Shown piece by piece: positions 20,482-45,816 of a DNA stretch of 64,000 nucleotides. The notes under the pieces were generated by a model that did not search any database, was not told the origin of the DNA, and was given only the letters and a program-made list of their open reading frames with translations. A program made the position numbers and the translations under genes. Every line of letters starts with the position of its first letter. Position 1 is the stretch's first letter. The stretch is from Magnolia sinica (taxonomy: Eukaryota > Streptophyta > Magnoliopsida > Magnoliales > Magnoliaceae), in contig NC_080585.1 of NCBI RefSeq assembly GCF_029962835.1, positions 57,585,443-57,649,442 of the forward strand, given 5' to 3'.

Positions 20482-21395
20482 CACTACAAGAAAGAGGATT
20501 TTTAGCGACGAAACACATTTTCGTCGCCAAAAGTCACTTTTAACGACGAAATAATTTTTCGTCGCCAAAAGTGTACTTTTAGTGACGAGACTTTTAGCGA
20601 CAAAAATTTTCGCAGCTAAAAATCATGGATGAGACTTTTAGCGATGAAAATTTTCGTCGCTAAAGGCTGCAAACAACTTTTCCTAAAAATCGAATGGATT
20701 ACTTTTAGCTACGAAAATTTTCGTAGCTACAAATCGTGGATGAGACTTTTAGCGACGAAAATTTTCACCCCGAAAGGGTGCAAACGATTTACTTTTAGTT
20801 ACGAAACTTTTCGTAGCTAAATATCGTAGATGAGATTTTTAGCGACGAAAATTTTCGTCACCAAAAGCTACCAACAATTTCTCATTTTAATTGAATCGAT
20901 TACTTTTAGCTACGAAACTTTTTGTAGCTAAAAATCATGGAACAGACTTTTAAGGACGAAACTTTCGTCGCCAAAAGCTGCAAACAATTTTTGAAGCCGC
21001 TCGAATGGATTACTTTTTGCTACGAAACTTTTCGTAGCTAAAATTTGTGAATGAGATTTTTAGCGACGAAAATTTTCGTTGCCAAAGGCTGCAAACAATT
21101 TTTCAAAAAATTGAATGGATTACTTTTAGCTACGCAACTATTCGTATCTAAAAATCATGGAATAGACTTTTAACGACGAAAACCTTCGTCGCTAAAAGCT
21201 GCAACAAGGATTTAAACAGTTAAGATTACTTTTAGCTACGAAATGTTTCGTAGCTAAAAAACCTAGATGTGACTTTTAACGACGAAAAGTTTCGTCGCTA
21301 AAGGCTGCAACAATTTTAAAAACGTGGATAAGACTTTTAGCGAGGAAAATATTCGTCGCTAAAGACTTTTACCTACGAAATATTTCGTAGGTAAA
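20482..21395. repeat. left subterminal palindrome field of the CACTA element
   Basis: About 17 short palindromes spaced about 50-70 bp apart. From 20633 on two classes alternate: GCGACGAAAA facing TTTTCGTCGC, and GCTACGAAAA facing TTTTCGTAGC. Examples of the first are at 20638-20661 and 20835-20863; of the second at 20703-20727 and 21233-21256. Spacers share GGCTGCAAACAATTT and GAATGGATT words. In En/Spm, subterminal repeats are the binding sites of TnpA, so this field is the likely transposase-binding region. Confidence 0.9.
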
Positions 21396-21404
21396 AGTCT
21401 CTTT

Positions 21405-21585
21405 TTTTATATATATACACCTATTAGAATATAATTCATCATATTCTTCCTGATATACACCTGTTATATAATATATTTCATCATATTCACATTCACATCC
21501 ATCTAAACCCAAACTATGTAAATTCATCCAAACATAAACTACATTCATCCAAACATAAACTGCATCCATCCAAACACAAAAATCT
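21405..21585. repeat. left inner inverted arm of the CACTA element
   Basis: This is the reverse complement, with drift, of about 45655-45890. Shared words on this side are ACACCTATTAGAATATAATTC, CTGATATACACCTGTTA, ATTTCATCATATTCACATTC and CATCCAAACATAAACTACA. The left arm has an extra tandem copy of the CATCCAAACATAAACT word (21525-21575). Confidence 0.75.
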
Positions 21586-21652
21586 TATGGAAAAAAAAAT
21601 AAATGAAAAGAGAGAGAACATATGAGAGGTGATCCAGACAAATGAAAAGAAA

Positions 21653-24600
21653 TCAGGTTTAGGTTATAGGTTATAGGTTATAGCTTTAGGGAATTGAGAA
21701 TAGGTTAAGGTTTAGGTTTAAGAAATCAGGTTCTGGTTCGGGTTCGGTATCGGGTTTAGGTTTGGGTTTTCAAGTTTAGGTTTAAGTTTAGGTTAGGGAG
21801 TTGAGATTAGGATTAGGTGTAGGTTTAGGTTTAAGGATTTGAGATTACATTTAGGTTTTAGGTTTAGGTTATATGTTTAGGTTTAGGTTATAAGTATAGG
21901 TTATAGGTTTAGGTTTAAGTTAGGTTATAGGTTAAGGTTTAGGGAATTGAGAATAGGTTAAGGTTTAGGTTTAAGTTAGGTTATAGGTTAAAGTTTAGGG
22001 AATTGAGAATAGGTTAAGGTTTAGGTTTAGGAAATCGAGTTCGGGTTCGGGTTTAGGTTTGGGGTTTCAAGTTTAGGTTTAGGTTAAGGAGTTGAGATTA
22101 GGATTAGGTGTAGGTGTAGGTTTAGGAATTTGAGAATACATTTAGGTTATAGGTTTAGGTTTAGGTTATAAGTGTCGGTTATAGGTTTAGGTTATAAGTG
22201 TCGGTTATAGGTTATAGCTTTAGGGATTTGAGAATAGGTTAAGGTCTAGGTTTAGGAAATCGGGTTCGGGTTTAGGATTGGGTTTAGGTTTGGGTTTTCA
22301 AGTTTAGGTTTAGGTTTAGGTTAGGGAGTTGAGATTAGGATTAGGTATAGGTTTAGGTTTGGGGATTTAAGAATACATTTAGATTTTAGGTTTAGGTTTA
22401 GGTTTAGGTTTAGGTTTTAGGTTTTAAGTTTAGGTTAAGGTTATAGCTTTAGGTTAGGTTTAGGTTATAGGTAATAGGTTATAGGTTATAGCTTTAGGGA
22501 ATTGAGAATAGGTTAAGGTTTAGGTTTAGTTTTAGGAAATCGAGTTCGGGATTGGGTTTAGGTTTGAGTTTTCAAGTCTAGGTTTATGTTTAGGTTAGGG
22601 AGTTGAGATTAGGATTAGGTGTAGGTTTAGGTTTAGGGATTTGAGAATATATTTAGGTTTTAAGTTTAGGTTTTGGTTTAGGTTATAGGTTTAGGTTTTG
22701 GTTTTAGGTTAAGGTTAAGGTTATAAGTTTAGGTTATTGGGTTATAGGTTATAGGTTAAGGTTTAGGTTAAGGTTATATGTTTTGGTTTAGGTTTAGGTT
22801 TAGGTTTAGGTTTTAGGTTTAGGTTAAGGTTATAGGTTTAGGTTTAGGGAATTGAGAATAGGTTAAGGTTTAGGTTTAGGAAATTGGGTTCGGGTTCGGG
22901 TTTAGGTTTGGGTTTTGAAGTTTATATTTAGACTAAGGAGTTGAGATTAGGATTGAGTGTAGGTTTAGGTTTAACGATTTGAGAATACATTTAGGTTTTA
23001 GGTTTAGGTTTAGGTTTTAGTTTATAGGTTTAGGTTTAGGTTTAGGTTTTAGGTTTAGGTTAAGGTTAAGGTTAGGTTTTAGGTTATAAGTTTAGGTTAT
23101 AGGTTTATGTTTAGGTTATAGGTTTTGGTTATAGGTTATAGGTTATAGCTTTAGGGATTTGAGAATATATTTAGGTTTAGGGATTTGAGAATACATTTAG
23201 GTTTTAGGTTGTAAGTGTAGGTTATAGGTTTAGGTTTAAGTTAGGTTATAGGTTAAAGTTTAGGGAATTGAGAATAGGTTAAGGTTTAGGTTTAGGGATT
23301 TGAGAATACATTTAGGTTTTAGGTTTAGGTTTAGGTTTTAGGCTTAGGTTTAGGTATAGGTTATAGGTTATAGCTTTAGGGAATTGAGAATAGGTTAAGG
23401 TTTAGGTTTAGGTTTAGGTTATAAGTTTTGGTTTAGGTTTAAGTTTAGGTTTAAGTTTAGGTTATAGGTTATAGGTTTTGGTTTAGTTTAAGGTTATAGG
23501 TTTTGGTTTAGGTTTAAGTCTAGGTTTTAGGTTTAGGTTAAGGTTATAGGTTTAAGTTATAGGTTTTGGTTTAGGTTATAGGTTTTGGTTTAGGTTAAGG
23601 TTATAGGTTTTGGTTTAGGTTATAGGTTTAAGTTATAGGTTTAAGTTAGGTTTAGGTTTAGGTTATAGGTTGTAGCTTTAGGGAATTGAGAATAGGTTAA
23701 GGTTTAAGTTTAGGACATCGGGTTGGGGTTCGGGATCGGGTTTAGGTTTGGGTTTTCAAGTTTAGGTTTAGGTTTAGGTTAGGGAGTTGAGATTAGGATT
23801 AGGTGTAGGTTTACGTTTAGGGATTTGAGAATACATTTAGGTTTTAGGTTTTGGTTTAGGTTTTAGTTTATAGGTTTAGGTTTAGGTTTTAGGTTTAGGT
23901 TAAGGTTAGGTTTGAGGTTATAAGTTTAGGTTACAGGTTATAGGTTATAGGTTAAGGTTTAGGCTATAGGTTTTAGTTTAGGTTAAGGTTATAGGTTTTG
24001 CTTTAGGTTTAGGTTTAGGTTTTAAGTTTAAGTTAAGGTTATAGGTTTAGGTTAGGTTTAGGTTTAGGTTTAGGTTATAGGTTATAGCTTTAGGGAATTG
24101 AGAATAGGTCAAGGTTTGGGTTTAGGAAATCAGGTTCGGGTTCGAGATCGAGTTTAGGTTTGGGTTTTCAAGTTTAGGTTTAGGTTAGGGAGTTGAGATT
24201 AGGATTAGATGTAGGTTTAAGTTTAGGGATTTGAGAATACATTTAGGTTTTAGGTTTTAGTTTATAGGTTTTGGTTATATGTTTAGGTTTAGGTTTAGGT
24301 TTAGGTTTAGGTTTTAGGTTTTAGGTTTAGGTTAAGGTTTAGGTTTAGGTTTAGGTTTTCGGCTTTAGGTTTAGGTTTAGGTTTGAGGTTATAGGTTTAG
24401 GTTTTCGGCTTTAGGTTTAGGTTTAGGTTTGAGGTTATAGGTTTAGGTTACAGGTTATAGGTTAAGGTTTAGGTTGTAGGTTAACGTTTAGGTTATAGGT
24501 TTTGGTTAAGGTTTATGTTTAGGTTATAGGTTATAGGTTATAGCTTTAGGGAATTGAGAATAGGTTAAGATTTAGGTTTAGGAAATTGGGTTCGGGTTCA

Positions 24601-27600
24601 GGATCGGATCTAGGTTTGGGTTTTCAAGTTTAGGTTTAGGTTTAGGTTAGGGAGTTGAGATTAGGATTAGGTGTAGGTTTAGGTTTAGGGATTTGAGAAT
24701 ACATTTAGGTTTTATGTTTAAGTTTAGGTTTAGGTTTTAGTTTATAAGTTTAGGTTATAGGTTTAGGTTTTGGTTTTAGGTTTAGGTTATGGGTTATAGG
24801 TTATGCGTTATAGGTTTTGGTTTAGGTTAAGGTTATAGGTTTTGGTTTTGGTTTAGGTTTAGGTTTTAGGTTTAGGTTAAGGTTAAGGTTAAGGTTATAG
24901 ATTTAGGTTATAGGTTTTCGTTAGGTTTAGGTTTAGGTTATAGGTTATGGTTATAGGCTATATAGCTTTAAGGAATTGAGAATAGGTTAAGGTTTAGGTT
25001 TAAGGTATCAGGTTTCGGTTCGGGATCGGGTTTAGGTTTGGGTTTTCAAGTTTAAGTGTAGGTTAAGTAGTTGAGATTATGATTAGGTGTAGGTTTAGGT
25101 TTAGGGATTTGAGAATACATTTAGGTTTTAGGTTATAAGTGCAGGTTATAGGTTTAGGTTTAAGTTAGGTTATAGGTTAAGGTTTAGGGAATTGAGAATA
25201 CATTTAGGTTTTAGGTTATAAGTGTAGGTTATAGGTTTAGGTTTAAGTTAGGTTATAGGTTAAGGTTTAGGGAATTGAGAATAGGTTAAGGTTTCGGTTT
25301 AGGAAATCGGGTTCGAGTTTAGGTTTGGGTTTTCAAGTTTATGTTTAGGCTAAGGAGTTGAGATTAGGATGAAGTGTAGGTTTAGGTTTAGGGATTTGAG
25401 AATAGATTTAGGTTTTAGGTTTAGGTTTTAGTTTATAGGTTTAGTTTATAGGTTTAAGTTTAGGTTAAGGTTAGGTTATAGGTTATATGTTATAGGTTAA
25501 GGTTTAGGTTATAGGTCATAGCTTTAGGGAATTGAGAATAGGTCAAGGTTTAGGTTTAGGAAATCGGGTTCAGGTTCGGGATCGGGTTTAGGTTTGGGTT
25601 TTCAAGTTTAGGTTTAGGTTTAGGCTAGGGAATTGAGATTAGGATTAGGTGTAGATTTAAGTTTAGGGATTTCAGAACACATTTGGGTTTTAGGTTTAGG
25701 TTATAGAATATAAGTTTAGGTTAAGGTTTAGCTCATAGGTTTTGGTTTAGATTAAGGTTATAGATTTAGGTTTGGGAAATCGGGTTCGGGTTCGAGTTCG
25801 GGATTGGGTTTAGGTTTGAGTTTTCAAGTTTAGGTTTAGGTTAGGGACTTGAGAATACATTTAGGTTTTAGGTTATAGCTTTAGGGAATTGAGAATAGGT
25901 TAAGGTTAAGGTTATAAGTCTAGGTTTAGGTTATAGGTTAAGGTTAAGGTTTAAGTTATAGGTATAGGTTTAGGTTATAGGTTAAGGTTTAGGTTTAGGA
26001 AATTGGGTTCGGATTCGAGATTGGCTTTAGGTTTGGGTTATAGGTATAGGTATTGGGATTTGAGAATAGGTTTAGGTTATGGTTATGAGTCTAGGTTTAG
26101 GTTATAGGTTAAGTTTTAGGTTTAGGCTATAGGTATAGGTTTAGGTTATAGGTTATAGGTTAAGGTTTAGGTTTAGGAAATCGGGTACGAGTTTGGGATC
26201 GGGTTTAGGTTTGGGTTATAGGTATAGGTTTTGGGATTTGAGAATAGGTTTAGGTTAAGGTTGTAAGTATAGGCTATAGGTAAAGGTTAAGGTTTAGGTT
26301 TCAACTATAAGTATAGGTTTTGGGATTTAAGAATAGGTTTAGGTTAAGGTTATGAGTCTAGATTTAAGTTATAGGTTAAGGTTTAGGTTTAGGTTATAGG
26401 TTAAGGTTTAGGTTTAGAAAATCGGGTTCGGGTTCGGGATCGGGTTTAGGTTTGGGTTATAGGTATCGGTTTTGGGATTTGAGAATAGGTTTAGGTTAAG
26501 GTTGTAAGTATAAGTTATAGGTTAAGGTTAAGGTTTAGGTTTCGGCTATAAGTATAAGTTTTGGGATTTGAGAATAGGCTTAAGTTAAGGTTATAAGTCT
26601 AGGTTTAGGTTATAGGTTAAGGTTTAGGTTTAGGAAATAGGGTCCGAGATCGAGTTTAGGTTTGGGTTATTGGTATAGGTTTTGGGATTTGAGAATAGGT
26701 TTAGGTTAAGGTTACAAGTCTAGGTTTAAGTTATAGGTTAAGGTTTAGGTTTAGGCTATAAGTATAGGTATAGGTTATATGTTAAGGTTTAGGTTTAGAA
26801 AATCGGGTTCGGGTTCAGGATCGGGTTTAGGGTTGGGTTATAGGCATAGGTTTTGGGATTTGAGAATAGGTTTAGGTTAAGGTGGTAAGTATAGGTTATA
26901 GGTTAAGGTTAAGGATTAGGTTTCGGCTATAAGTATAGGTTTTGGGATTTGAGAATAGGTTTAGGGTTAAGGTTATAAGTCTAGGTTTAGGTTATAGGTT
27001 AAGGTATAGGTTTAGGTTATAGGTATAGGTTTAGGTTATACGTTAAGGTTTAGGTTTAGGAAATCGGGTTTGGGATCAGGTTTAGGTTTGGGTTATAGGC
27101 ATAGATTTTGAGATTTGAGAATAGGTTTAGGTTAAGGTTGTAAATATAGGTTATAAGTTAAGGTTAAGGTTTAGGTTTCGGCTATAAGTATAGGTTTTGG
27201 GATTTGAGAATAGGTTTAGGTTAAGGTTATAAGTCTAGGTTTAGGTTATAGGTTAAGGTTTAGGTTTAGGTTATAGGTATAGGTTTAGGTTATAGGTTAA
27301 GGTTTAGGTTTAGGTTATAGGTATAGGTTTAGGTTATACATTAAGGTTTAGGTTTAGAAAATCGGGTTCGGGTTTGAGATCGGGTTTAGGTTTGGGTTAT
27401 AGGTATAGGTATTGGGATTTGAGAATAGGTTTAGGTTAAGGTTATGAGTCTAGGTTTAGGTTATAGGTTATGGTTTAAGTTTAGGCTATAGGTATAAGTT
27501 TAGGTTATAGGTTAAGGTTTAGTTTTAGGAAATCGGGTTCGGGTTTAGGTTTGGGTTATAAGTATAGGTTATAGGTTATGAGAATAGGTTTAGTTAAGGT

Positions 27601-29755
27601 TATGAGTCTAGGTTTAGGTTATAGGTTTTGTTTTAGGTTTAGGCTATAGGTATAGGTTTAGGTTATAGGTTTAGGGAATGGTTTAGGAAATCGGGTTCGG
27701 GTTTGAGATTGGGTTTAAGTTTGGGTTATAGGTATAGGTTTTGGGATTTGAGAATAGGTTTAGGTTAAGGTTGTAAGTATAGGTTATAGGTTAAGGTTAA
27801 GGTTTAGGTTTCGGCTATAAGTATAGGTTTTAAGATTTGAGAATATGTTTAGGTTAAGGTTATAAGTCTAGGTTTAGGTTATAGGTTAAGGTTTAGGTTT
27901 AGGTTATAGGTTAAGGTTTAGGTTTAGGAAATCGGGTTCGGGTTCGGGATCGGCTTTAGGTTTGGGTTATAGTATAGGTTTTGGTATTTGAGAATAGGTT
28001 TAGGTTAAGGTTATGAGTCTTGGTTTAGGTTATAGGTTAAGGTTTAGGTTTAGGCTATAGGTATAGGTTTAGGTTTAGGAAACCGGGTTGGGGTTCGGGA
28101 TCGAATTTAAGTTTGGGTTATAGGTGTGGGTTTTGGGATTTGAGAATAGGTTTAGGTTAAGGTTGTAAGTATAGGTTATAGGTTATAGGTTAAGGTTAAG
28201 GTTCAAGTTTCAGCTATATGTATAGGTTTAGGGATTTGAGAATAGGTTTAGGTTTAGGTTTAGGTTTAGGTTATAAGTCTAGGTTTAGGTTATAGGTTAA
28301 GGTTTAGGTTTAGGTTATACATTAAGGTTTAGGTTTTGGAAATCGGGTTAGGGTTCGGGATCGGGTTTAGGTTTGGGTTATAGGTATAGGTTTTGGGATT
28401 TGAGAATAGGTTTAGGTTAAGGTTATGAGTCTAGGTTTAGGTTATATGTTAAGGTTTAGGTTTAAGCTTAGGTATAGGTTTAGGTTATAGGTTAAGGTTT
28501 AGGTTTAGGAAATCGGGTTTGGGTTCGGGATCGGGTTTAGGTTTGGGTTATAGGTATAGGTTTTGGGATTTGAGAATAGGTTTAGGTTAAGGTTGTTAGT
28601 ATAGGATATAGGTTAATCTTAGGGTTTAGGTTTCGGCTATAAGTATAGGTTTTGAGATTTGAGAATAGGTTTAGGTTAAGATTATGAGTCTAGGTTTAGG
28701 TTTAGGCTATAGGTATAGGTTTAGGTTATAGGTTAAGGTTTAAGTTTAGGAAATCGGGTTCGGTTTCGGGATCGGGTTTAGGTTTGGGTTATAGGTATAG
28801 GTTTTGGGATTTGAGAATAGGTTTAGGTTAAGGTTGTAAGTATAGGTTATAGGTTAAGGTTAAGGTTTATGTTTCGGCTATAAGTATAGGTTTTGGGATT
28901 TGAGAATAGGTTTAGGTTAAGGTTATAAGTCTAGGTTTAGGTTATAGGTTAAGGTTTAGGTTTAGGTTATAGGTATAAGTTTAGGTTATAGGTTAGGGTT
29001 TAGGTTTAGGAAATCGGGTTAGGGTTCGGGATCGGGTTTACGTTTGGATTATAGGTATAGGTATTGGGATTTGAGAATAGGTTTAGGTTAAGGTTATGAA
29101 TCTAGGTTAAGGTTATAGGTTAAGGTTTAGGTTTAGGCTATAGGTATAGGTTTTGGGATTTGAGAATAGGTTTAGGTTAAGGTTATGAGTCTAGGTTTAG
29201 GTTATAGGTTAAGGTTTAGGTTTAGGCTATAGGTATAGATTTAGGTTATAGGTATAGGTTTTGGGATTTGAGAATACATTTAGGTTTTAGGTTTAGGTTT
29301 AGGTTTTAGGTTTTAGGTTAAGGTTATATGTTTAGGTTAAGGTTTAGGTTTAAGTTAAGGTTGAGGTTTAGGTTATAGGTTAAGGTTTTAGGTCATAGGT
29401 TTTGGTTTAGGTTAAGGTTATAGGTATAGGTTAAGGTTTAGGTTTAGGTTTAGGTTTAGGTTATAAGATATAGGTTTAGGGAATTGAGAATAGGTTAAGG
29501 TTTAGGTTTAGGAAATCGGGTTCGGGTTCGGGATCGGGTTTATGTTTGGGTTTTCAAGTTTAGGTATAGGTTTAGGTTAGGGAGTTAAGATTTGGATTAG
29601 GTGTAGGTTTAGGTTTAGGGATTTGAGAATACATTTAGGTTTTAGGTTTAGGTTTAGGTTTTAAGTTTTAGGTTAAGGTTTAGGTTTAGGTTAAGGTTGA
29701 GGTTTAGGTTATAGGTTAAGGTTTTAGGTCATAGGTTTTGGTTTAGGTTAAGGGT
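21653..29755 (+). repeat. telomere-like array A, TTTAGG orientation, 8.1 kb
   Basis: Dense repeats of GGTTTA (TTTAGG) mixed with GGTTATA, GGTTAA and GGTTTTA variants, with the G-rich strand on plus. Superimposed are longer units. One type (about 21653-25990 and again 29270-29750) carries GGGAATTGAGAATAGG, a TCGGGTTCGGG cluster, GGGTTTTCAAG and GGAGTTGAGATTAGGATTAG. A second type (about 25990-29270) has GGGTTATAGGTATAGG, GGGATTTGAGAATAGG and TTTCGGCTATAAGTATAGG. No open frame of note occurs. The motif is mainly a hexamer, not the usual plant heptamer TTTAGGG. Confidence 0.95.
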
Positions 29756-29759
29756 ATGG

Positions 29760-30150
29760 TCCCTGCAAATATAGATATAAACACGGCCATCCGGCGCAAA
29801 TGGCCAGGCCCTTCCAATGTTGTCCATAAAAAATGGACAGCTTCATCATGGTCATAATAGCGGTTCCCTCTTTCCAGGGAACCCCGCTCTTCCGAATAGC
29901 TCCGACGCACATCCGGGTCTGCTCCATTAATTTCGATCAAATACATAAACACAGCCTGTCCAAATGGCCAGGCCCCTCCAATGCTGTCCATAGGAAATGG
30001 ACAGCTTCATCATGGTCATAACAGCGGTTCCCACCTTCCAGGGACCCCCGCTCATCCGGATAGCTCCGACACACATCCGGGTCTGCTCCATTAATTTTGA
30101 GCAAATACATAAACACGGCCTGTCCAAATGGCCAGGCCACTCCAATGGTT
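29760..30150. repeat. tandem duplication, about 164 bp unit, 2.3 copies
   Basis: The word GTCCATAAAAAATGGACAGC at 29822 recurs as GTCCATAGGAAATGGACAGC at 29986, giving a period of about 164 bp. Each copy also has AAATGGCCAGGCC, CAGGGA-CCCCGCTC and CACATCCGGGTCTGCTCC. A partial third copy ends near 30148. The array starts immediately where the telomere-like repeats stop. Open frames across it on both strands are by-products of the repeat. Confidence 0.9.
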
Positions 30151-31095
30151 TAGGCTTTCCTTACCTTCCATTGTATGCTTTCAAGGTGCAGATGGCCATT
30201 GAAACACACATACATCTTGGGAATCGCTTCTCAAAACCGCAAACTGTTTTGTTTTGAAACTCGTTCATCTCACCTGAAAACCTGTGTTATAAAACATAAT
30301 TGGTTATTTGCTGTAAAAAATAAGGTAATTCGAAAAATCAAATACACCTAGAAAAATAAATAAATAAATAAATAATTTTGAATTGTGAGTAGTAAAACCA
30401 AAAGCATTTGAATTTGTAAACGTTAAACAGGCCCATCCCATCCATTCACTTAGATATTATGATCTGAGCCATTGATCATATATGGTGGGTCATCCTGCTT
30501 GTGAATCAGAGGGGTGGTTCTAATAAATTTCCACTCTACTAGTTGATTAGATGGGAAAATAGAAGTAGACTTGCAACATTCATCTGTAAAATGTGAACAA
30601 CAAAACCAAATGATGCATTTTACAGGTGTTTACAGCAACATAAAATATTTTTCTACTAGTGTAATGACTTAGGGTGTGATGCATTAGGCTTGTGTGGAGC
30701 AAGCCCTAGACATTATCCTTTCTTTTGTGATTATCCATGACTCTAGATCTGACACATAAAACTTCAGGTTCCAGTGATTTCCTTCTTTCAACTCTAGTTG
30801 CATCAGCCTACTTGGCTCAACTCCCATTCAACTCTTATTATACAAGAACAAAGCTGAATGGTGATTTCAAACTGGTTTGCCGGATAGAAAAAAATACATC
30901 AGGCGAACTGTCCATTGTACATGGTCTTTTTCAAATATTTGCAACCCTCAACCTCAATTAAGAATGGTGGAAAGAGCGTTGAACATCAATTTTGGAGCTT
31001 TCCAAACACAAACTAATTATTGCAACTCAGTTCAGTAGTGCATCCAAAAGCAGCCTGAAACTTTTATGTTCAAATAGAGATTTATCAATGAGAAT
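30151..31095. other. CACTA interior island, left part; no gene identified
   Basis: AT-rich unique-looking DNA. A short plus-strand open frame at 30737-30961 has no feature I recognise. It lies downstream of the eIF2-alpha-like fragment in that fragment's orientation and may be flanking sequence taken with it (inference). Confidence 0.4.
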
Positions 31096-31098
31096 ATA

Positions 31099-31200
31099 AC
31101 TCACAGCTCTAGGTGCCTCCTTCACTACAAGTTTCCCCTTGTGTCGGTCTATCTCTTCTGTGCAAGCTTTAATTGCATCATTTAGAACTGATATGCCTTG
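31099..31200 (-). pseudogene. captured fragment resembling one exon of eIF2-alpha
   Basis: The minus strand encodes QGISVLNDAIKACTEEIDRH followed by KGKLVVKEAPRAVS. By recall this matches the segment near the C-terminal end of plant translation initiation factor 2 subunit alpha. It is a small piece of a protein of about 340 residues. The match begins just after a T-rich stretch and AACAAGG, like a splice acceptor, and ends at GCTGTGAGTTAT, where GTGAGT could be a splice donor. On both sides the frame continues into sequence that does not look like eIF2-alpha. It therefore looks like an exon with intron flanks, copied as genomic DNA. No other eIF2-alpha exon was recognised. Confidence 0.65.
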
Positions 31201-31319
31201 TTTTTGCCAAAATGGAAAAAAAAAATTAAAAAATTTAAAAAATGGCAAATTTTGAAGAACAATAGACATCGGGAAACAATAAAATTGATCCACAACCAAA
31301 ATATAGCAATTTTCTTTTA

Positions 31320-32080
31320 TTGGCAACATACAAAAAAGGAGTCCCCATCCATCAGCTAAAACATTGGTGATTGTGTTGGCCACTTGTATGAATACCGATA
31401 GGTTGCTTCTCTAGAATACGCGAGATATCTAGAGAATAATGAAGAATTATAATGGATGACAATAGAGGAATCCAATAATATGATAAACACTACAGATAAG
31501 CATTGCAACTCTGCCTACTAGTGACACTCTAGCTGGTCCCAAGCCCAGGCAAAAGAGAGTTGATGTTAGGTGGACAGCCAGTGGTAAAACCTTTGCAAAG
31601 CAAATCATGAGAAACCGACCTCGAATAGCTGGGACAAGGTTATGATAAGGATGATGACGATGATGGCACCATAGATAAGTAAATGGTTAGAAGGTTTTAT
31701 GTTTGAAGGAATATATTTCTAAATGGAAAACAGATGCAGGAAAGGAAACACAATCCATTAAGATCATGAATAAATGAATCCTATAATCAAAAAAGGTCTA
31801 AGTTCCATCCCTTAGCTAACACATCAATGAGCATGTTGCCCTCTTATAGAGAACATCTGAGGGGCTAGTTCTCCAAAGCATACAAGATTCTAGAGATCAT
31901 AGAAGAATTACAAAATAAAATATTAGAGGAATCCAAATGGTATGATAGACATTAGTTAAGCATTGTAATTCCACATGGTAGTAACAGGCCAACCATTCCC
32001 AAGGCACGGTAAAGTGGGGTTGATGCTAGATTGGTAGTAAATAATCAAACTCGGTCAAACAAATCAAGGTAATCCAACAA
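31320..32080. repeat. diverged direct duplication with a retroposon-like tail between copies
   Basis: 31320-31620 and 31795-32080 are similar in order: CCCATCC..CAGCTAA, a TCTAGAGA(A/T) segment, GAAGAATTA, AGAGGAATCCAA and TTGATG(T/C)TAG. Between the copies, 31595-31665 reads ACCGACCTCGAATAGCTGGG, then ACAAGGTTATGAT and a run of GATGATG-like triplets. That resembles the 3' tail of RTE-type LINEs or derived SINEs. Both calls are by eye. Confidence 0.45.
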
Positions 32081-32083
32081 ACC

Positions 32084-34525
32084 TTGATTTTCAGGAGAAG
32101 TTGTAGAGATTCTCATATTTTTCTATTACGGTCCTCTTTATTTGGCTAACATAATTAGGAAGAAGAAATTTAGACTCTCTGTTTGTAATTAGAGAACTGG
32201 GTATACCCAATTAGGACTTCAACTTGGGTTTGAGACAACCTGAGTTTGGGTCATTTTGGCTGAGGCTGTCAAGGTCATTGAGTTGGTTCGGTTTGAAAAC
32301 AATAATCCAATTTGAATTCAGGCTGTGTTTGGGTTGAGCAAATGCAGGTTGAGTAAGGTCAAGTTCGGAATAATCCATGGAACTTGGGGCATTCAAACAT
32401 TGGAAATCTCGAGTTCCATGGAATTCAACAGAGGATTCAACACATCCCAACAACGAGTAAGTGAAGAAAAAATAGCCAAATTCCCCATTGATGGTCCTTG
32501 ATCGGATACAGAAGATGGCCAAACAACAACACCAACATTTTTGCATAAAACACATGCATGGAAAATCTTTGAGTGAATCCAAACTGCACAACTTGAGACC
32601 AAAGTTGCTCTTTCAAATCTGGAAGGTGAAATCCCTAATTCTAAAATTCTCAGATTCCCAAAATCCTAAAACCCCCAAATCCCCAATTTATAAAATCAGA
32701 AAAACTCAAATTCAAGGTCCACATTCAAATCTGTAAGCCCTAAAATCTGTAAATCCCTAAATGAGGGTACACATTCGAATTGCAAATCCACAAATTACCA
32801 AATCCCCAAATTCATAAATCAACATTGAGATTGAGAGAGAGAGAGAGAGAGAGAGAGATGCCTCACGTTCGTGGGTAGGGCGGGCGGCAACAGTGGGGTG
32901 GAGAGATCAGAGAGAGAGAGGAAGAGAGAGAGAGAGAGAGAGAGAGAGGGTGGAGAGATGAACTCATTAAGGAGCAAGAACATACCTCTTGCAAGCTCAA
33001 GAAGAGAGATTCAATCAATCAAAAATCTAAAAATTACAATTTCATAGCCGCATGTATGCGGAAAGGGGGAAATCTGATTTTCTCCTTCATTTCAACTCCA
33101 ATGCTCTTGAAAAAAACAACAACTGGACCCTCTTGCAAGCTCTAATGATCGGCTGAAATCTCCCCTTCAATGTCCTTGTGGATTGAGAGAATCAAAGAAA
33201 TGGAGGAGAGCTTGCGTCGCATGCTAGGGTTCAAAAAAGGGGTTTTCGAAAACCCCTTTTTAAGACTCTTTTCTTTTAACATGAGTTTTCTAGTTTGTTT
33301 ATGGTGTGAGTTCAACACCAACTTTAACAAAGAAACACCACCATTTAAAGTTAAAATCAATAAAGAAATATTCAGTATCAACTTTACATTTTAAGGTTTT
33401 TAAAAATATGAGTTTTCAACCATTTAACATAAAGTTTTTTTCTGACATTTACTACTACCATTGGATTTTTTGTTTTAGATTTGTTTTCTTCATGAAATAC
33501 ATGCGACAACAATTTATCTCCCTGCCATTCTCAAGGTTCCATTTTGGATCGGTTTCCATCTTGTAACTTAAACATTAGTATTGCAGTATTTATATCTGTC
33601 ACCATCATTACCATAACCTTAGTAACATGAATCTTCTAAGGTGCTCAGTCTATTTGGTATTCTGCTTCTATATCTTGGGATCTGTCTCCCACACTGCATA
33701 TCATGTGTCTGCTTCAAATCCACCTTTGTTTTCGTAAAGTGCAGTTATTGTTGGATGTTAAGTGTTTTATTAATCAAATTCTTGAAGATATATCAAATTA
33801 AAATTTTAAAAAAAAAATTTTAAAACAGAAGAAGAAGAAGAAGAAAGAAAGAAAGATAAGAAAATCAATTCCATCTTAAAAGGTTCCCCTTTCCATCTCA
33901 ACCAAAATAGTAGATATAAGGGCTGACCTCTACCATACCGGTGGCTCAGTAAGAACTGTCTTTGTGCTGCTTTTTGGACACTGGATATTTTATCAGGCCA
34001 ATTCCTAGAGATCTATCTAATTGGCATCTACACAAGAAAAGAAAATTAAAAGAATTCAAATTACAGGGCTCCCATTTTGATAGGAATAATGGGCATACTT
34101 GGCCCAATCAAGATGGTTGATATTGGGTTCTCTCTTCCATACATGTAGCTCATGTGTATGTCTGACAATATCATTGTGTTGGTTCCACAATGATTAGTTC
34201 TTACTTCTTAGCTAAACATTACACTGATTTATGATCCAAACTGTCTGAACAAGGGGCTCTAAATGGATGATTAAAAAGTATTTACAAAATTACACATTCA
34301 ATATGTGTAAGTCCATCAATCAGTATACTAGGATCATTTGATCATATCATTTTTCAGGTTATGACCCATCAAAGGTGGGATCCAACTCTTGGACTGTCCG
34401 GGTTCATGTACACATGTATGAATGTAGGGGAGATGGCATGGGTATCAACCGTCATACTCATGCTGAGCTTGTTGTATTTCCTATAAATATTGTTGCATGA
34501 ACCTAAAAATGAATAAATCTAATTC
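32084..34525. other. CACTA interior island, central part; no gene identified
   Basis: Contains (AG)n tracts at 32833-32858 and 32908-32948 and A-rich words near 32640-32830. A short minus-strand frame follows AACCCTAGC at about 33220 (MRRKLSSISLILSIHKDIEG). CT tracts and AACCCTAG upstream of a short frame are what plant 5' untranslated regions often look like, so this could be the first exon of a captured gene, but I cannot identify it. A purine-rich run (AAG)n is at 33827-33856. Confidence 0.35.
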
Positions 34526-34745
34526 TTAGGTGGACCACACAATTGAGATTGACTGCCTACTGTTGAATACTTCTTAGGCCCATAATAGTTTAGATCAAGC
34601 TGATATTTGTTTTTTTTTTTTCCCTCCATCCGAGTCTATATGACTTTATAAACAAGTTGGATGACAAATAAACATTATGGTGGGTCCTAAGAAAGTTTCA
34701 ACAGTATAGTGTGGTCTACTTGAGTGTTAGATCTACCTCATTTTT
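34526..34745. mobile_element. remnant of the foldback MITE family
   Basis: Begins AGGTGGACCACACAATTGAG and ends with the inverted TGTGGTCTACTTGAG...CTACCTCATTT. Between these it has ATCAAGCTGATATTTG and GTTGGATGACAAATAAACAT, the internal words of the MITE copies at 48114-48650 and 48740-49000. No target duplication was identified. Confidence 0.6.
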
Positions 34746-34811
34746 TTATTTATAATCTAAAATTATATGACAAAATTTTGATGGGTTGCTTCCTACCACT
34801 ATGACTTTCAT

Positions 34812-34905
34812 ACTTGCTCCATCTAAAGTCCTATAAGACTATCTCCTATAGTGCTTGCCTGGTAACTTGCTCCATCTAAAGTCCTATAAGAGTATCTCCT
34901 ATCAC
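34812..34905. repeat. 53-bp tandem duplication
   Basis: ACTTGCTCCATCTAAAGTCC at 34812 recurs exactly at 34865, followed in both by TATAAGA-TATCTCCTAT. Confidence 0.9.
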
Positions 34906-35169
34906 TCCTCAATTGTTGTGGGATGATGATTTGGATGGTGTGAACTTATATACATGTATGGCATGTGTAATGGATGGTTGCCACACCATATGAAAACCTT
35001 AACCTTAGATATCCATCATTTATAATTCATAGATACTTTCAAAATCCTATTCATTTAATGGCCCACAGTCTTATCAAAGACGAGCGGATTTCGTTAGGTA
35101 TTTGTGAGTTCTGACTATGATTGTGGGGCCCACCTTGATGTATGTTCATGTTGTCTATACATTTTGCTA

Positions 35170-38100
35170 GCTTATTTTAAGTGTATAACCTATAATCTAA
35201 CCTAAACCTATAACTATAACCTAAACCTAAACCTATAACCTTAAGCCTAATATATAACCTTAACCTAAACCTAAACCTATAACCTAAACCTATTCTCAAA
35301 TCCCTAAACCTAAACCTAAACCTAAACCTATAACCTAAACCTATTCTCAAATCCCAAAACCTATAACTATAACCTAAACCTAAACCTATAACCTATAACC
35401 TAACCTAAACCTAAACCTATAAACTTAACCTAAACCTAAACCTAAACCTATAACCTTAACCTTAACATATAACCTTAACCTAAACCTAAACTTATAACCC
35501 AAACCTATTCTCAAATCCCTAAACATAAACCTAAACCTATAACCTATACCTATTCTCAAATCCCAAAACCTAAACTTAAACCTTAATGTATTCTCAAATG
35601 CCTAAACCTAAACCTACACCTAATCCTAATCTCAACTCCCTAGCCTAAACCTAAACCTAAACTTGAAAACCCAAACCTAAACCCGGTCCTGAACCCGAAC
35701 CAGATTTTCTAAACCTAAACCTTGACCTATTCTCATTTCCCTAAAGCTATAACCTATAATCTAACCTAAACCTATAACTATAACCTAAAACTAAACCTAT
35801 AACCTTAAGCCTAACATATAACCTTAACCTAAACCTAAACCTATAACCTAAACCTATTCTGAAATCCCTAAACTTAAACCTAAACCTAAACCTATAACCC
35901 AAACCTATTCTCAAATCCCCAAACCTATAACTATAACCTAAACCTAAACCTATAACCTATAACCTAACCTAAACCTAAACCTATAAACTTAACCTAAACC
36001 TAAACCTATAACCTTAACCTTAACATATAACCTTAACCTAAACCTATAACTATAACCCAAACCTATTCTCAAATCCCTAAACCTAAACCTAAACCTATAA
36101 CCTATACCTATTCTCAAATCCCAAAACCTATAACCTAAACCTTAATGTATTCTCAAATGCCTAAACCTAAACCTACACCTAATCCTAATCTCAACTCCCT
36201 AGCCTAAACCTAAACCTAAACTTCTAAACCCAAACCTAAACCCGGTCCCGAACTCGAACCCGATTTCCTAAACCTAAAGCTTGACCTATTCTCATTTCCC
36301 TAAAGCTATAACCTATAACCTAACCTAAACCTATAACTATAACCTAAACCTAAACCTATAACCTTAAGCCTAACATATAACCTTAACCTAAACCTAAACC
36401 TATTCTCAAATCCCTAAACCTAAACGTAAACCTAAACCTATAACCTAAACGTATTCTCAAATCCCAAAACCTATAACTATAACCTAAACCTAAACCTATA
36501 ACCTATAACCTAACCTAAACCTAAACCTATAAACTTAACCTAAACCTAAACCTATAACCTTAACCTAAACCTATAACTATAACCCAAACCTATTCTCAAA
36601 TCCCTAAACCTAAACCTAAACCTATAACCTATACCTATTCTCAAATCCCTAAACCTAAACCTAAACCTTAATGTATTCCCAAATGCCTAAACATAAACCT
36701 ACACCTAATCTTAATCTCAACTCCCTAGCCTAAACCTAAACCTAAACTTGAAAACCCAAACCTAAACCTGGTCCTGAACCCGAACCCGATTTCCTAAACC
36801 TAAACCTTGACCTATTCACAATTCCCTAAAGCTATAACCTATTCTCATTTCCCTAAAGCTATAACCTATAACCTAACCTAAACCTGTACTTATAACCTAA
36901 ACATATTCTCAAATCCCAAAACCTATAACTATAACGTAAACCTAAACCTAAACCTATAAACTTAACCTAAACCCAAAACTATAACCTTAACCTTAACATA
37001 TAAACTTAACTTAAACCTAAACCTATAACCTAAAACTATTCTCAAATCCCTAAACTTAAACCTAAACCTATAACCTAAACCTATTCTCAAATCTCAAAAC
37101 CTATAACCTAAACCTAAATGTATTCTCAAATGCCTAAACCTAAACCTACACCTAATCCTAATCTCAGCTCCCTAACCTAAACCTAAACCTAAAATTGAAA
37201 AATCAAACCTAAACCCGGTCCCGAACCCGAACTCGATTTCCTAAACCTAAACCTTGACCTATTCTCATTTCCCTAAAGCTATAACCTATAACCTAACCTA
37301 AACCTATAACTATAACCTAAACCTAAACCTATAACCTTAAGCCTAACATATAACCTTAACCTAAACCTAAACCTATAACCTAAACCTATTCTCAAATCCC
37401 TAAACCTAAACCTAAACCTAAACCTATAACCTAAACCTATTCTCAATTCCCAAAACCTATAACTATAACCTAAACCTAAACCTATACCCTATAACCTAAC
37501 CTAAACCTAAACCTATAAACTTAACCTAAACCTAAACCTATAACCTTAACCTTAATATATAACCTTAACCTAAACCTATAACTATAACCCAAACCTATTC
37601 TCAAATCCCTAAACCTAAACCTAAACCTATAACCTATACCTATTCTCAAATCCCAAAACCTATAACCTAAACCTTAATGTATTCTCAAATGCCTAAACCT
37701 AAACCTACACCTAGTCCTAATCTCAACTCCCTAGCCTAAACCTAAACCTAAACTTGAAAACCCAAACCTAAACCCGGTCCCGAACCCGAACCCGATTTCC
37801 TAAACTTAAACCTTGACCTATTCTCATTTCCCTAAAGCTATAACCTATAACCTAACCTAAACCTATAACTATAACCCAAACCTATTCTCAAATCCCTAAA
37901 CCTAAACCTAAACCTATAACCTAAACCTATTCTCAAATCCCAAAACCTATAACTATAACCTAAACCTAAACCTATAACCTATAACCTAACCTAAACCTAA
38001 ACCTATAAACTTAACCTAAACCTAAACCTATAACCTTAACCTTAACATATAACCTTAACCTAAACCTATAACTATAACCCAAACCTATTCTCAAATCCCT

Positions 38101-39345
38101 AAACCTAAACCTAAACCTATAACCTATACCTATTCTCAAATCCCTAAACCTAAACCTAAACCTTAATGTATTCTCAAATGCCTAAACCTAAACCTACACC
38201 TAATCCTAATCTCAACTCCCTAGCCTAAACCTAAACCTAAACTTGAAAACCCAAACCTAAACCCGGTCCCGAACCCGAACCCAATTTCCTAAACCTAAAC
38301 CTTGACCTATTCTCAATTCCCTAAAGCTATAACCTATAACCTAACCTAAACCTATAACTATAACCCAAACCTATTCTCAAATCCCTAAACCTAAACCTAC
38401 ACCTAATCCTAATCTCAACTCCCTAGCCTAAACCTAAACCTAAACTTGAAAACCCAAACCTAAACCTGGTCCCGAACCCGAACCCGATTTTATAAACCGA
38501 AACCTTGACCTATTCTCAATGCCCTAAAGCTATAACCTATAACCTAACCTAAACTTATACTTATAACCTAAACCTATTTTCAAATCCTAAAACCTATAAC
38601 TATAACTTAAACCTTAACCAAAAACCTATAACATAGCCTAAACCTAAACCTATAAACTTAATCTAAACCTAAACCTATAACCTTAACCTTAACATATAAC
38701 CTTAACTTAAACCTAAACTTATAACCTAAACCTATTCTCTAATCCCTAAACCTAAACCTAAACCTATAACCTAAACCTATTCTCAAATCCCAAAACCTAT
38801 AACCTAAACCTTAATGTATTCTCAAATGCCTAAACCTAAACCTACACCTAATCCTAATCTCAACTCCCTAGCCTAAACCTAAAACTAAACTTGAAAACCC
38901 AAACCTAAACCCGGTCTCGAACCTGAACCCGATTTCCTAAACCTAAACCTATAACTATAACCAATTCCCTAAAGCTATAACCTATAACCTAACCTAAACC
39001 TATACTTATAACCTAAACCTATTCTCAAATCCCAAAACCTATAACTATAACCTAAACCTATACCTATAACCTTAACCTAAACCTAAACCTATAACCTAAA
39101 CCTATTATCAAATCCCTAAACCTAAACCTAAACCTTAATGTATTTTCAAATACTAAACCTAAACCTAAACCTATAACCTATAACCTATAATCTATAACCT
39201 AACTCAAATCTCTAAACCTATACCTACACCTAATCCTAATCTCAACTCCAATTCCCTAAACTTAGACCTAAACTTATACCTAGTCTCTATTCCCTAAACC
39301 TAAACATATAACCTAAACCTATAACCTAGCCCAATCTTAAAGCTA
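35170..39345 (-). repeat. telomere-like array B, CCTAAA orientation, 4.2 kb
   Basis: The same repeat family as array A but reverse complemented: CCTAAA with CCTATAA and CCTTAA variants on plus. A longer unit is clear. The landmark CCCGGTCCCGAACCCGAAC recurs near 35682, 36240, 36768, 37215, 37772, 38260, 38468 and 38910, mostly 440-560 bp apart. Each unit also has TTCTCAAATCCC, CTTGAAAACCCAAACC, CTCCCTAGCCTAAACC and CTAATCCTAATCTCAACTCC. These are the reverse complements of the first unit type of array A; the second A type is not seen here. Confidence 0.95.
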
Positions 39346-39381
39346 TTTTCGTAAACTGACTTTAGTCATTTCATTGTAGAC

Positions 39382-42300
39382 ATGGATAAGAGTTGGATGC
39401 GAGCTAAGAATAGGTTTGGCCCAGAGTATAAGCAAGGGGCTCAAGAGTTCATGGAATTTGTCCGAAATCGGGTAGATTCAAGGAATAGGATTAGGTGTCC
39501 ATGTCGAAAATTCAAGAACATGATATATAAGACTTTAGACAAAGTAGAGGATGATTTGTTCATAGTTGGGATTGACCAGGGTTACACTTGGTGGATCTAT
39601 CATGGTGAAGATATGACCCATAGAGTTGAGCTCTCCAAAGTCCTTGCTGACCCGATTGTGCCGGATGACGAGGATGAAGACGTTGACGAAATGTAAGATA
39701 TCATAAGGGATGTATTCAGGGGAACAACTGCGGATACTGATTTTGCAGCGACAAGCAGTAACCAAGATATTCCTCCAATGGGTGATGTCGATTCAGAAAA
39801 GTTTAGTAGGTTGTTGAGGGAGGCAGAACGTCCACTTTATCCGGGGTGTCAGAACTTCTCCAAGTTGAATTTTCTTACAAAGTTACTTCATTTGAAGACA
39901 ATAAATCGTTGGAGTAACAAATCGCTTGACATGTTGCTTGAGTTGTTGAAATAAGCGTTATCGGACGGTGAGACATTGCGAAAGTCTCATTACGAGGCAA
40001 AAACATTGATGCGAGACTTGGGCCTTGGTTATGAACTCATATATGCATGTATAAATGATTGTTTATTATATTGGAAAAAAGCACGTAAGGCTGAAGAGTG
40101 TCAAGAATGTGGAGAGTGTAGGTGGAAGAATGACAAACCCAGGGGTAAGAAAATCCTGCGAAAGGTGTTAAGGTACTTCCCATTGAAACCCAGATTGCAA
40201 AGATTGTTTGTCTCGTAAGACGGCTGAAGATATGAGGTGGCATAAGGAGAAACGTGTTCATGATGATAGTACACTAAGGCACCTTGCGGACGCTGAAACC
40301 TCGTAAAATTTTGACAAGCAACATGGCTGGTTTGCAGAAGACTCGCAATATTCGATTAGGCGTTGCAAGTGATGGTTTTAATCTATTTGGTAATATGAGT
40401 AGCTCGTACAGTATGTGGCCAGTGGTACTTATGCCCTACAATTTACCTCCTTGGTTGTGTATGAAGGAGTCATTTTTCATGATGTCATTGCTTATTCCTG
40501 GACCCATGTCACCTGGGAATGACATTGATGTGTATTTACGACCGTTAGTAGACGAGTTAAACGAGTTGTGGAGTCAAGGTGTACAAACATATGATACATT
40601 TACAGGACAAACATTTCGATTGTATGCAGCGGTCTTGTGGACAATAAATGACTTTTTCGCATATGAAAATTTGTCTGGGTGGTGCACGAAGGGCAAGTTG
40701 GCTTGTCCTACATGTGGTATTGAGACTTGTTCATTGTCATTGAAGCATGATAGGAAAACATGTTATATGGGCCATCGTTGCTTCCTTCCGAGCGATCATA
40801 GTTGGCGTAGGAAGACGATGATCTTTGATGGCAAACAAGATCATAGGCCACCTCCGAAAGAGCTATCTGGAGAAGACGTGATGCAACAACTGAGTAACAT
40901 TGGAGAGGTTAGATTTGGTAAGACATCGCACTTGAAGAAGAGGAAAGTACAATATTGGACTATAATTGGAGAAAGAAGAGCATCTTTTTTGAGTTGCCCT
41001 ATTGGAGTGATCTGAAATTGCGACACAACTTGGATGTCATGCATATTGAGAAAAATATATGTGACAATGTCTTTGGAACATTGATGAACATAGAGAAGAA
41101 AACAAAAGACAGTTTTAAGACTCGATTGGATCTACAAGAAATGGGTTTAAGGAAAGAGTTGCACTTGCAACCACATGGAAATTCGTATACCATGCCATCA
41201 GCCTGCTACACGTTGACAAAACTAGAGAGAAAGCATTTATGTGAATGGTTGAGATCGGTGAAGTTTTCCAATGGGTATGCGTCAAACATATCTCAACGCG
41301 TAAACGTTACGGACTGTAAGGTAACAGGAATGAAAAGTCATGATTATCACGTCCTTCTGCAACGCCTACTGCCGGTTGCGATTCGTGGATTCTTGAGCAA
41401 GGATATCAGTGCGGTACTGATTGAGTTGGGGATATTCTTTAAGGATTTGTGTTCGAGATCGTTGAATGTAGATGTTATTAAACGACTGGAGAGGGACATT
41501 GCCGTAATCCTTTGCAAACTTGAAAGAATATTTTCACCTGCATTTTTCGATGTCATGGTACACCTAGCGATTCACTTACCGCACGAGGCGAAGCTTGCAG
41601 GCCCAGTACAATATCGTTGGATGTATCCAATCGAAAGGTGGTACCAATATGTTAAATTTTTTATTCATTCCATAAACTACATATATTCATGTTTTCATAC
41701 GTATAACATAGTGGTTTTGTGTATAGATACCTTCACACACTGAAACGATTTGTGAGGAATAAGGCACGACCGGAGGGGTCGATAGCTGAAGCGTACATTG
41801 ATAATGAGTGCCTTACATTTTGCTCCATGTATCTTCGTGGCATAGAGACTAGATTCAACCGAGAAGATCGGAATGCCGATGAAGGGCAGGAGCATGAACA
41901 AGGACCCATATCTGTATTTGCACATAACGTTCATCCTTTAGGATCCCCGACGTTTCAGGATATGGACCTTGGGGATCTAGCAAAGGCACGGTGGTATGTG
42001 TTGCATAATTGTGAAGAAATAGAGTCGTACTTGGAGTAAGTCTTCCCTCGATTATTATTTTCTCTACATATGATGATCTTAATGTTTCTTGCTGATGACG
42101 TGCCATTTATGTGTAGCGAACACATAGACGAGATGAAGTCCAAATTTTTCACAAATTATGATCGAATGCATCAGGATCATTTTCCAGAATGGTTCGCCAA
42201 CCGTGTAAGATTTCACATTGTATCTCACCACACTTAGCATTTTCGTTGTATTGCACATTATTTCAACTTATGAAAATTCCTAAACAATTATATTCTGTAC

Positions 42301-43099: not shown

Positions 43100-43238
43100 A
43101 TGTACACATGATTTACATGTCATTTTTCAATTCGAATAATTTATGTATTTCATGTATACGTGAAAATTACAAGTCATGATTAATTCTTTTTATTGACTTG
43201 TTTATAATCCACATTTGCAGTTAAGTCAATTTCTGATC

Positions 43239-43625
43239 ATGTCCTCCTTAAACCGGAGCGTAGCAGAATCACACAACATACTTCATCAGCTGTTGCAGAT
43301 AGATATTTTGGTCCTATCTTCTTCTGGTAGGGCCATAGAGATACCCGGTCTGGTCGATGAGTGTAGAGTGGAATATATCGACGATGACTTAGATGAAAGA
43401 TTATGCTATCTCAAAGAAATTCCAGGGCTGATGGAGATATATAACCGCGGGAAACGAGATATGGAAGATGCGACTCTGTCACTTACACATCTGAATGGAG
43501 TCCCAAGAGACAAGATATCTCCTATTGTGACTGGCATGTTGGCTGTAAATATGTCGAGTGCTTCACACGAAATGACATATGCTTCTGAAGTATACGATAG
43601 CTTACGCAGGGAGTACTTCGGATAG
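43239..43625 (+). CDS. intact 128-codon ORF between the two CACTA genes, function unknown
   Basis: Opens MSSLNRSVAESHNILHQLLQ and ends SEVYDSLRREYFG with a stop. It has no internal stop, unlike both neighbours. No domain, signal peptide or membrane segment is evident. The composition is acidic, with two similar halves around LDERLCYLKEIPGLMEIYNR. It lies 139 bp after the tnpD stop and 275 bp before the transposase_24 gene, on the same strand. It might be a further exon of tnpD, an accessory CACTA gene or a chance open frame. The upstream bases TTTGCAG at 43214-43220 could be a splice acceptor, which would favour an exon. Confidence 0.45.
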   Translation: MSSLNRSVAESHNILHQLLQIDILVLSSSGRAIEIPGLVDECRVEYIDDDLDERLCYLKEIPGLMEIYNRGKRDMEDATLSLTHLNGVPRDKISPIVTGMLAVNMSSASHEMTYASEVYDSLRREYFG

Positions 43626-45619: not shown

Positions 45620-45654
45620 ATTTTTTTTTATATTTGTTTATTATGTTAAGTTTT

Positions 45655-45756
45655 GAATGAATGTGATGCGGATAACATTGTTTGTGTTTGGATGAATGTA
45701 GTTTATGTTTGGGTTTGGATTAATTTAATTAGATGGATGTGAATGTGAATATGATG

Positions 45757-45816
<60 letters not shown>

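What the first reader, a model, noticed from the sequence alone, without database searches (positions are those of the whole stretch)
21653..39345. Two opposed telomere-like arrays inside one DNA transposon
8.1 kb of TTTAGG-type repeat on the plus strand and 4.2 kb of its reverse complement face each other across a 5.4 kb island. The order (G-strand then C-strand) is that of two fused telomeres, yet both lie between intact CACTA ends, so the array travels with a transposon. The hexamer TTTAGG is not the plant telomere heptamer TTTAGGG, so either a telomeric seed decayed or the repeat arose independently. Such an element could seed interstitial telomere-like blocks, confuse telomere FISH, and, if transcribed, make long hairpin RNA. 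I do not know of a described CACTA family with this architecture.
Basis: partly seen in the sequence, partly recalled or inferred. Interest (0 to 1): 0.88.

Follow-up and report, generated by a model that had tools for sequence, protein, structure and literature searches.

The report
Plant transposon with opposed telomere-like arrays
A family of plant jumping genes carries two long telomere-like repeat arrays facing each other as a built-in part and has spread them through the chromosome interiors; they do not look like remains of real telomeres.

Summary
A 26.4-kb CACTA element (20482-46881, TSD ACT, subterminal repeats, decayed tnp2-type transposase ORFs) holds a G-strand array (21655-29757) and a C-strand array (35185-39335) around a 5.4-kb island. 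In the host genome (1.84 Gb, unnamed) this is the layout of a CACTA family, not a one-off. Dense arrays lie in 16 of 20 sampled stretches of other copies; the C-array/transposase junction is base-exact in 13 of 20 and its motif occurs 146 times. The outer G-array junction occurs 69 times; 29 of 69 pair with a listed right junction, none in the wrong order. A 164-bp repeat caps the inner array edges (1,840 cap motifs). In 19 of 20 arms compared, the most similar arm is one of the same side in another copy, so the opposed layout predates the family's spread. A telomere fusion is not supported: the telomere here is TTTAGGG, the arrays keep a mainly 6-bp register and have no exact TTTAGGG dimer. 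The C array ends 46 bp before the transposase ATG, beside a conserved splice-acceptor-like motif, so the arrays may be intronic (inference). CACTA elements with satellite arrays are in print; this opposed, capped, family-wide, telomere-like form was not found in 8 searches.

The parts
20482..46881 (+). CACTA element, 26,400 bp, with TSD ACT at 20479-20481 and 46882-46884
   Evidence: TIRs CACTACAAGAAA... and, reversed, CACTACATGAAA...; TSD read from sequence
20500..21400 (+). left subterminal repeats, TTTTAGCGACGAAAATTTTCGTCGC type
   Evidence: TRF rows 20500-21395; sequence
21592..21654 (+). leader segment ending AAATCAG at the array edge; edge conserved at 21652-21654 in several copies
   Evidence: junction motif at 69 places, 47 exact
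21655..29757 (+). G-strand array (TTTAGG/TTAAGG/TTATAGG with longer words), 8.1 kb
29758..30147 (+). inner cap: about 2.1 copies of a 164-bp repeat; reversed caps stand before the C array in other copies
   Evidence: cap motif at 1,840 places
30148..35184 (+). centre (island), shared by 6 other loci at 95-96%
31099..31209 (-). fragment like eIF2-alpha, about 35 residues
   Evidence: phmmer E 1.1e-4 (9hd7_W, entry label PSII 6.1 kDa protein, 447 aa) and 0.019 (9h74_A, eIF2 subunit 1); no Pfam match
31551..32428 (.). about 880-bp repeat also found alone elsewhere
   Evidence: five places matching only this part, at 94-95%
35185..39335 (-). C-strand array, 4.2 kb, complement of the G-array type
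39356..39379 (+). splice-acceptor-like stretch CTGAC...TTCATTGTAG directly before ACATGG
   Evidence: conserved in 14 aligned copies; motif at 146 places with up to 3 mismatches, none for the reversed pattern
39382..43099 (+). transposase region in broken ORFs: Transpos_assoc, Transposase_21, DUF4218, DUF4216
43215..45619 (+). further ORFs (43215-43625, 45188-45619) where a tnpA-like gene would be expected; not identified
45920..46870 (+). right subterminal repeats

Best explanation
This is one decayed copy of a CACTA (En/Spm-type) family whose standard structure includes an internal inverted module: 5' end - G array - 164-bp cap - centre - reversed cap - C array - transposase. Shown by sequence: fixed outer junctions at many loci, caps on the inner edges, arms that keep their side-specific identity across copies, and variable arm lengths. 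Inferred: the module arose once by inverted duplication of an array-plus-cap unit in a founder element and has been carried by transposition since; the arms change length and exchange sequence by slippage, unequal exchange and gap repair; the centre picks up host gene pieces during such repair; and the whole stretch is tolerated because it lies upstream of the coding region, probably inside an intron of the transposase transcript ending at the acceptor at 39379. The likeness to telomeres is most probably convergent.
For: 16 of 20 stretches from other copies hold dense arrays; the right junction is exact at 39336 in 13 of 20; the left junction is fixed at 21654 in L016 and L024, at 21653 in E11 and at 21654 in L045. 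Genome counts: right-junction motif 146, left 69, cap 1,840, each 0 for the reversed control. 29 of 69 left junctions pair with one of the 100 listed right junctions (of 146) at 4.5-49.5 kb, 0 in the wrong order. In the first 100 of 777 array-marker places, opposite neighbours within 30 kb are + then - in 5 of 5. 31-mer sharing: the closest arm is a same-side arm of another copy for 19 of 20 arms; window G shares 45% with L016 G and 5% with window C. In-register identity is 83-87% between same-side arms of different copies, against 74-76% between the two arms of one element. A second junction subtype also has the C array right up to the junction in 8 of 8 sampled loci. 5 of 5 sampled caps without a marker nearby abut array on the expected side. 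Acceptor: CTGAC in 12 of 14 copies and TTGTAG in 14 of 14.
Against: Side identity is blurred in E28 and L024: E28 G and E28 C share 20.5% of 31-mers, more than E28 G shares with E11 G (10.6%) or L016 G (14.5%). One G-oriented array (L026) is of C type and joins the transposase at another point. 4 of 11 right junctions on C1 and on C2 below 68.5 Mb have no marker upstream within 45 kb (the marker is a strict 22-mer). 40 of 69 left junctions have no listed right partner within 60 kb. No transcript was available, the donor-like site CAG/GTTTAG is weak, and E28 and L046 lack it, so the intron is not shown. Only 2 full-length comparison copies (E11, E28) plus L024 were read from left end to transposase.
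Confidence: 0.78

Rival explanations
1. The arrays began as a free satellite captured by a CACTA founder, as proposed for the C. quinoa 171-bp satellite, and then spread with it.
For: A satellite array inside CACTA elements is in print for C. quinoa (PMC8978399, abstract and passages). Nothing here dates the arrays before the element.
Against: No array free of the CACTA context was seen: of 4 isolated marker arrays sampled, 3 lie between a CACTA 5' end and the cap, one of them (L048) with interrupted junctions, and the fourth (L047) is all array. That is a small sample.
Confidence: 0.2
2. The arrays derive from telomeres: a fused or captured telomere, or a telomeric seed that decayed to TTTAGG.
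For: The G-then-C order is that of a telomere fusion; the unit differs from TTTAGGG by one G; 31 TTTAGGG occur in the G array and 27 in the C array. One contig end is itself noisy, with TTTAGG variants among TTTAGGG (C1 right end, 13 TTTAGGG and 5 TTTAGGT in 400 bp).
Against: 6-bp register, no exact TTTAGGG dimer, fixed non-telomeric junctions and caps, dispersal through chromosome interiors in the listed part; the arms are arm-specific and old.
Confidence: 0.1
3. The inverted arrays work for the element: read-through RNA forms a hairpin that feeds small RNAs and limits transposase, or the arrays bind host telomere-repeat or Myb proteins and set local chromatin.
For: Where the arms abut, 991 nt of L024 fold at -631 kcal/mol against -254 (sd 8.6) for 20 shuffles. 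The module is kept in many copies.
Against: No small-RNA, expression or binding data. The strict plant telo-box core is nearly absent (0 to 3 AAACCCTA per arm). The two arms of the window are 74% alike only, and conservation by descent explains the module without function.
Confidence: 0.2
4. Assembly artefact.
For: Arrays are hard to assemble; exact lengths may be wrong.
Against: The same junctions recur at tens of separate loci with different flanks.
Confidence: 0.02

Closest known systems
Jozin-type CACTA of Chenopodium quinoa with a captured 171-bp satellite array (PMC8978399; abstract and passages seen)
   Same: A CACTA element with tnp2 transposase carries a long tandem array (5.5 kb, 32.5 monomers), found in several copies; gene fragments are captured in the 5' region upstream of the coding part.
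   Different: There a single array of 171-bp monomers near the 3' end; here two opposed arrays of a telomere-like hexamer type, capped by a 164-bp repeat, in the 5' part, family-wide.
Telomere-like (TTTAGG)n arrays of pea (PMC2206039; passages seen)
   Same: The same hexamer as long arrays in a plant whose telomere is TTTAGGG.
   Different: In pea FISH placed them at the termini of all chromosomes and no transposon link is given in the passages seen; here they are internal and lie in a CACTA family.
Tandem repeats carried by DNA transposons (MITEs with repeats, Tetris foldback element) as reviewed in PMC9659126 (passages seen)
   Same: DNA transposons that carry or generate tandem repeats.
   Different: Those named are MITEs or a foldback element (known to me from titles and the review's table); here the arrays are internal to a large transposase-bearing CACTA.
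En/Spm of maize (recalled)
   Same: TIR CACTA, 3-bp TSD, subterminal repeats, tnp2-type transposase; one transcript from the 5' end with a long first intron (recalled).
   Different: No telomere-like arrays (recalled).

Membership tests
CACTA / En-Spm superfamily | TIRs that begin CACTA | tested here: met
   CACTACAAG at 20482 and, reversed, CACTACATG at 46881
CACTA / En-Spm superfamily | 3-bp target-site duplication | tested here: met
   ACT on both sides (read)
CACTA / En-Spm superfamily | subterminal repeats in both ends | tested here: met
   20500-21395 and 45964-46712
CACTA / En-Spm superfamily | tnp2-type transposase | tested here: met
   Transposase_21 E 5.7e-88, Transpos_assoc 1.4e-20, DUF4218, DUF4216, in broken ORFs
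CACTA / En-Spm superfamily | second gene, tnpA-like | tested here: inconclusive
   ORFs at 43215-45619 have no significant Pfam family
plant telomere | tandem TTTAGGG | tested here: not met
   no exact dimer in either array
plant telomere | position at chromosome ends | tested here: not met
   window at 57.6 Mb of an 84.3-Mb contig; markers listed on C1 and C2 are internal
satellite-bearing CACTA of Chenopodium type | tandem array inside the element, in several copies | tested here: met
satellite-bearing CACTA of Chenopodium type | array close to the 3' end | tested here: not met
   arrays lie between the 5' end and the transposase
foldback elements | terminal inverted repeats made of tandem repeats | tested here: not met
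   the opposed arrays are internal; the ends are CACTA TIRs

The most novel reading that the evidence does not exclude
The opposed arrays are a working organ of the transposon: a many-kilobase palindromic 5' intron, bounded by the site at 21654 and the acceptor at 39379, whose RNA folds into a giant hairpin that tunes the element's own expression through small RNAs, while the inverted arms act as a recombination chamber that flips, swaps and refills its centre with host gene pieces.
Probability: 0.12. Interest if true: 0.85.

Novelty: new variant of a known kind. Interest (0 to 1): 0.6.

Why it matters
A DNA transposon family that carries long telomere-like arrays as a fixed part gives a concrete source for interstitial telomere-like blocks without telomere fusion, and a warning for FISH and k-mer telomere calls. 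The cap motif occurs at 1,840 places, so the arrays may add up to several Mb (a rough estimate). Arms that keep their identity across copies, swap at edges (E28) and invert (L026) make the family a natural experiment on how long inverted repeats evolve in plant chromosomes. Whether the module is intronic and makes small RNAs can be tested directly with existing kinds of RNA data.

Tried and rejected
Telomere fusion, free satellite insertion and assembly error were weighed and set low (see rivals). The idea that the cap is a separate transposon sitting in an otherwise plain array was raised by its 1,840 places; 5 of 5 sampled caps far from any marker still abut the array on the expected side, and insertion into one array would not reverse it, so I dropped it; the sample is small. 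Rfam gave 0 matches in 20000-47500. The parent eIF2-alpha gene was not located: the PF07541 search did not complete. Pfam gave nothing for either host gene fragment.

Paper searches for a CACTA with telomere-like arrays. Only listings were seen, except PMC8978399 (outline, abstract, passages), PMC9659126 (passages) and PMC2206039 (passages). The library lacks most subscription papers.

Full report
What is there. The window lies at G000:C13:57585443-57649442 of an unnamed 1.84-Gb genome in 127 contigs. The two arrays are real and at the stated places. They lie in a CACTA element of 26,400 bp, 20482-46881, with TIRs, a 3-bp TSD (ACT), subterminal repeats and tnp2-type transposase domains in broken ORFs. 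The order is: left end; leader to 21654; G array to 29757; about 2.1 copies of a 164-bp repeat to 30147 ('cap'); centre to 35184; C array to 39335; 46 bp; transposase ATG at 39382.

Family-wide. The 3' 303 bp gave 634 matches in the genome (1,162 candidates, 40 scored). From the next 20 rows I fetched the stretch 5-15 kb upstream of each 3' end. Dense arrays (at least 20 units in a 500-bp bin) are in 16 of 20; L010 is weak (12), and L009, L013 and L015 have none there. For these four the genome listings show a piece of the module elsewhere upstream of the same 3' end: marker and left junction for L009, right-junction motif for L013 and L015, left junction and cap for L010; whether these belong to the same copies was not checked by reading through. 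The array/transposase border falls exactly at 39336 in 13 of 20. A reversed cap stands before the C array in 7 of 20 (L011, L014, L017, L021, L022, L023, L028). In L024 the arms abut with no centre. Two copies were extended to the left end: E11 (L043+L011) and E28 (L044+L028) have 5' end, G array, cap, centre, reversed cap, C array and transposase in the window's order; in E28 the G-side cap is cut short and the leader is lost.

Genome counts. With up to 3 mismatches the right junction has 146 places, the left 69 (47 exact) and the cap 1,840; reversed controls gave 0 each. The lists are capped at 100 rows for the first and third. 29 of 69 left junctions have a same-strand right junction (from the 100 listed) in the expected direction at 4.5-49.5 kb, median 21.8 kb; in the opposite direction there are 0. 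An exact 22-mer found in all 20 arms compared has 777 places; the 100 listed (C1 and part of C2) form 48 clusters, 5 with both strands, 5 of 5 as + then -. 7 of 11 right junctions on C1 and the covered part of C2 have such a marker within 45 kb upstream; 1.2% of C1 lies that close downstream of a marker. The right junctions come in two subtypes (GTCATTTC, GTCTTTTC); 8 of 8 sampled of the second have the array up to the junction. Of four isolated markers, three lie between a CACTA 5' end and the cap block (L045, L046, L048; in L048 other sequence interrupts both array edges, and L046 has a short reversed piece at the left edge), and L047 is array from end to end. Five caps far from any marker all abut array on the expected side.

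Age of the opposed layout. Among 20 arms, the highest 31-mer sharing is with a same-side arm of another copy for 19; the exception, L026, is G-oriented but of C type, joined to the transposase at 40155 by way of a cap, that is, an inversion. Window G shares 45.4% with L016 G, 27.1% with E11 G and 5.0% with window C. Against the simple picture, E28 G shares 20.5% with E28 C, more than with E11 G or L016 G, and both inner edges of E28 are of the window's G type, so arms do exchange sequence. Same-side arms align in register at 83-87%, while opposite arms of one element reach 74-76%, the level of any shifted alignment of such arrays (72-78%). Transposase pieces of 13 copies are 93.8-96.9% identical (median 95.1, 78 pairs). 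Hence the two-arm layout predates the spread of these copies.

Not a telomere. A perfect TTTAGGG 31-mer has 991 places; the listed ones cluster near contig ends of C2, C3, C4 and C7, with a few internal ones, and 1 of 14 contig-end stretches of 400 bp shows it (C1 right; L029 is N from first to last bases shown and L040 ends in N). In the arrays the step is 6 more often than 7 (286 against 105 in G, 152 against 48 in C) and no exact TTTAGGG dimer occurs.

Centres. The window's centre recurs almost whole at six other loci (95-96%): C2:37.10M, C5:77.19M, C7:77.57M, C16:18.27M, C1:4.80M and C9:47.64M; five of these (all but C5) lie beside left or right junctions or 3' ends of this family. It has a 35-residue eIF2-alpha-like piece on the minus strand (best E 1.1e-4 to a 447-aa chain labelled PSII 6.1 kDa protein, 0.019 to an eIF2 subunit 1). 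The 466-bp centre of E11 instead has a 40-residue RBM48-like piece (E 1.2e-5). Neither has a Pfam match. These are short matches; source genes were not located. The window lacks the reversed cap; L022 has the end of the window's centre followed by 4.7 kb and then the reversed cap, so a deletion in the window is likely (inference).

How it may work. Directly before the ATG, CTGAC (12 of 14 copies; CTAAC in E28, CTGAT in L023) and TTCATTGTAG (14 of 14) look like a branch site and a 3' splice site; the ATG itself is ACG in L023. At the other border AAATCAG/GTTTAG could be a weak donor. By analogy with En/Spm (recalled), a transcript from the 5' end would cross both arms and splice them out. Where arms abut, 991 nt of L024 fold at -631 kcal/mol against -254 (sd 8.6, 20 shuffles). 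None of this is shown by transcripts.

Known and new. CACTA elements with a captured satellite array are in print (PMC8978399), and TTTAGG arrays are known at pea chromosome ends (PMC2206039). I found no paper on opposed telomere-like arrays in a CACTA family. I therefore call it a new variant of a known kind.

Noticed in passing
G000 C12:58502094 and 58518732; C13:34772767 and 34789405; C13:38356338 and 38372973: Three pairs of 3' ends stand 16,635-16,638 bp apart in the same orientation, as if a tandem double element had moved or been copied as a unit.
   Followed up: no
E11 (L043 reversed), about 216-6376: A 6.2-kb insertion TGTCACGCCCC...CTTACA with CTTTT on both sides in the left subterminal repeats looks like an LTR retrotransposon; similar letters (TGTCACGCCCC) interrupt the C array of L020.
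   Followed up: partly
window 31551-32428: An 880-bp piece of the centre occurs alone at five other places at 94-95%, so it is probably a separate small mobile element.
   Followed up: no
left-to-right junction intervals: Intervals up to 49.5 kb point to very large CACTA copies; nested insertions were not excluded.
   Followed up: no
window 62664-63455: ORF with an Exo_endo_phos domain (E 8.3e-6), perhaps from a LINE.
   Followed up: no
window 7353-7591 and 14656-14963: Two related 45-bp tandem repeats (TTTATGCCC...ACACAAGAGCAAAGG) 7 kb apart.
   Followed up: no
window 47407-47510: A 51-bp unit in two copies, 98% alike, just outside the CACTA right end.
   Followed up: no
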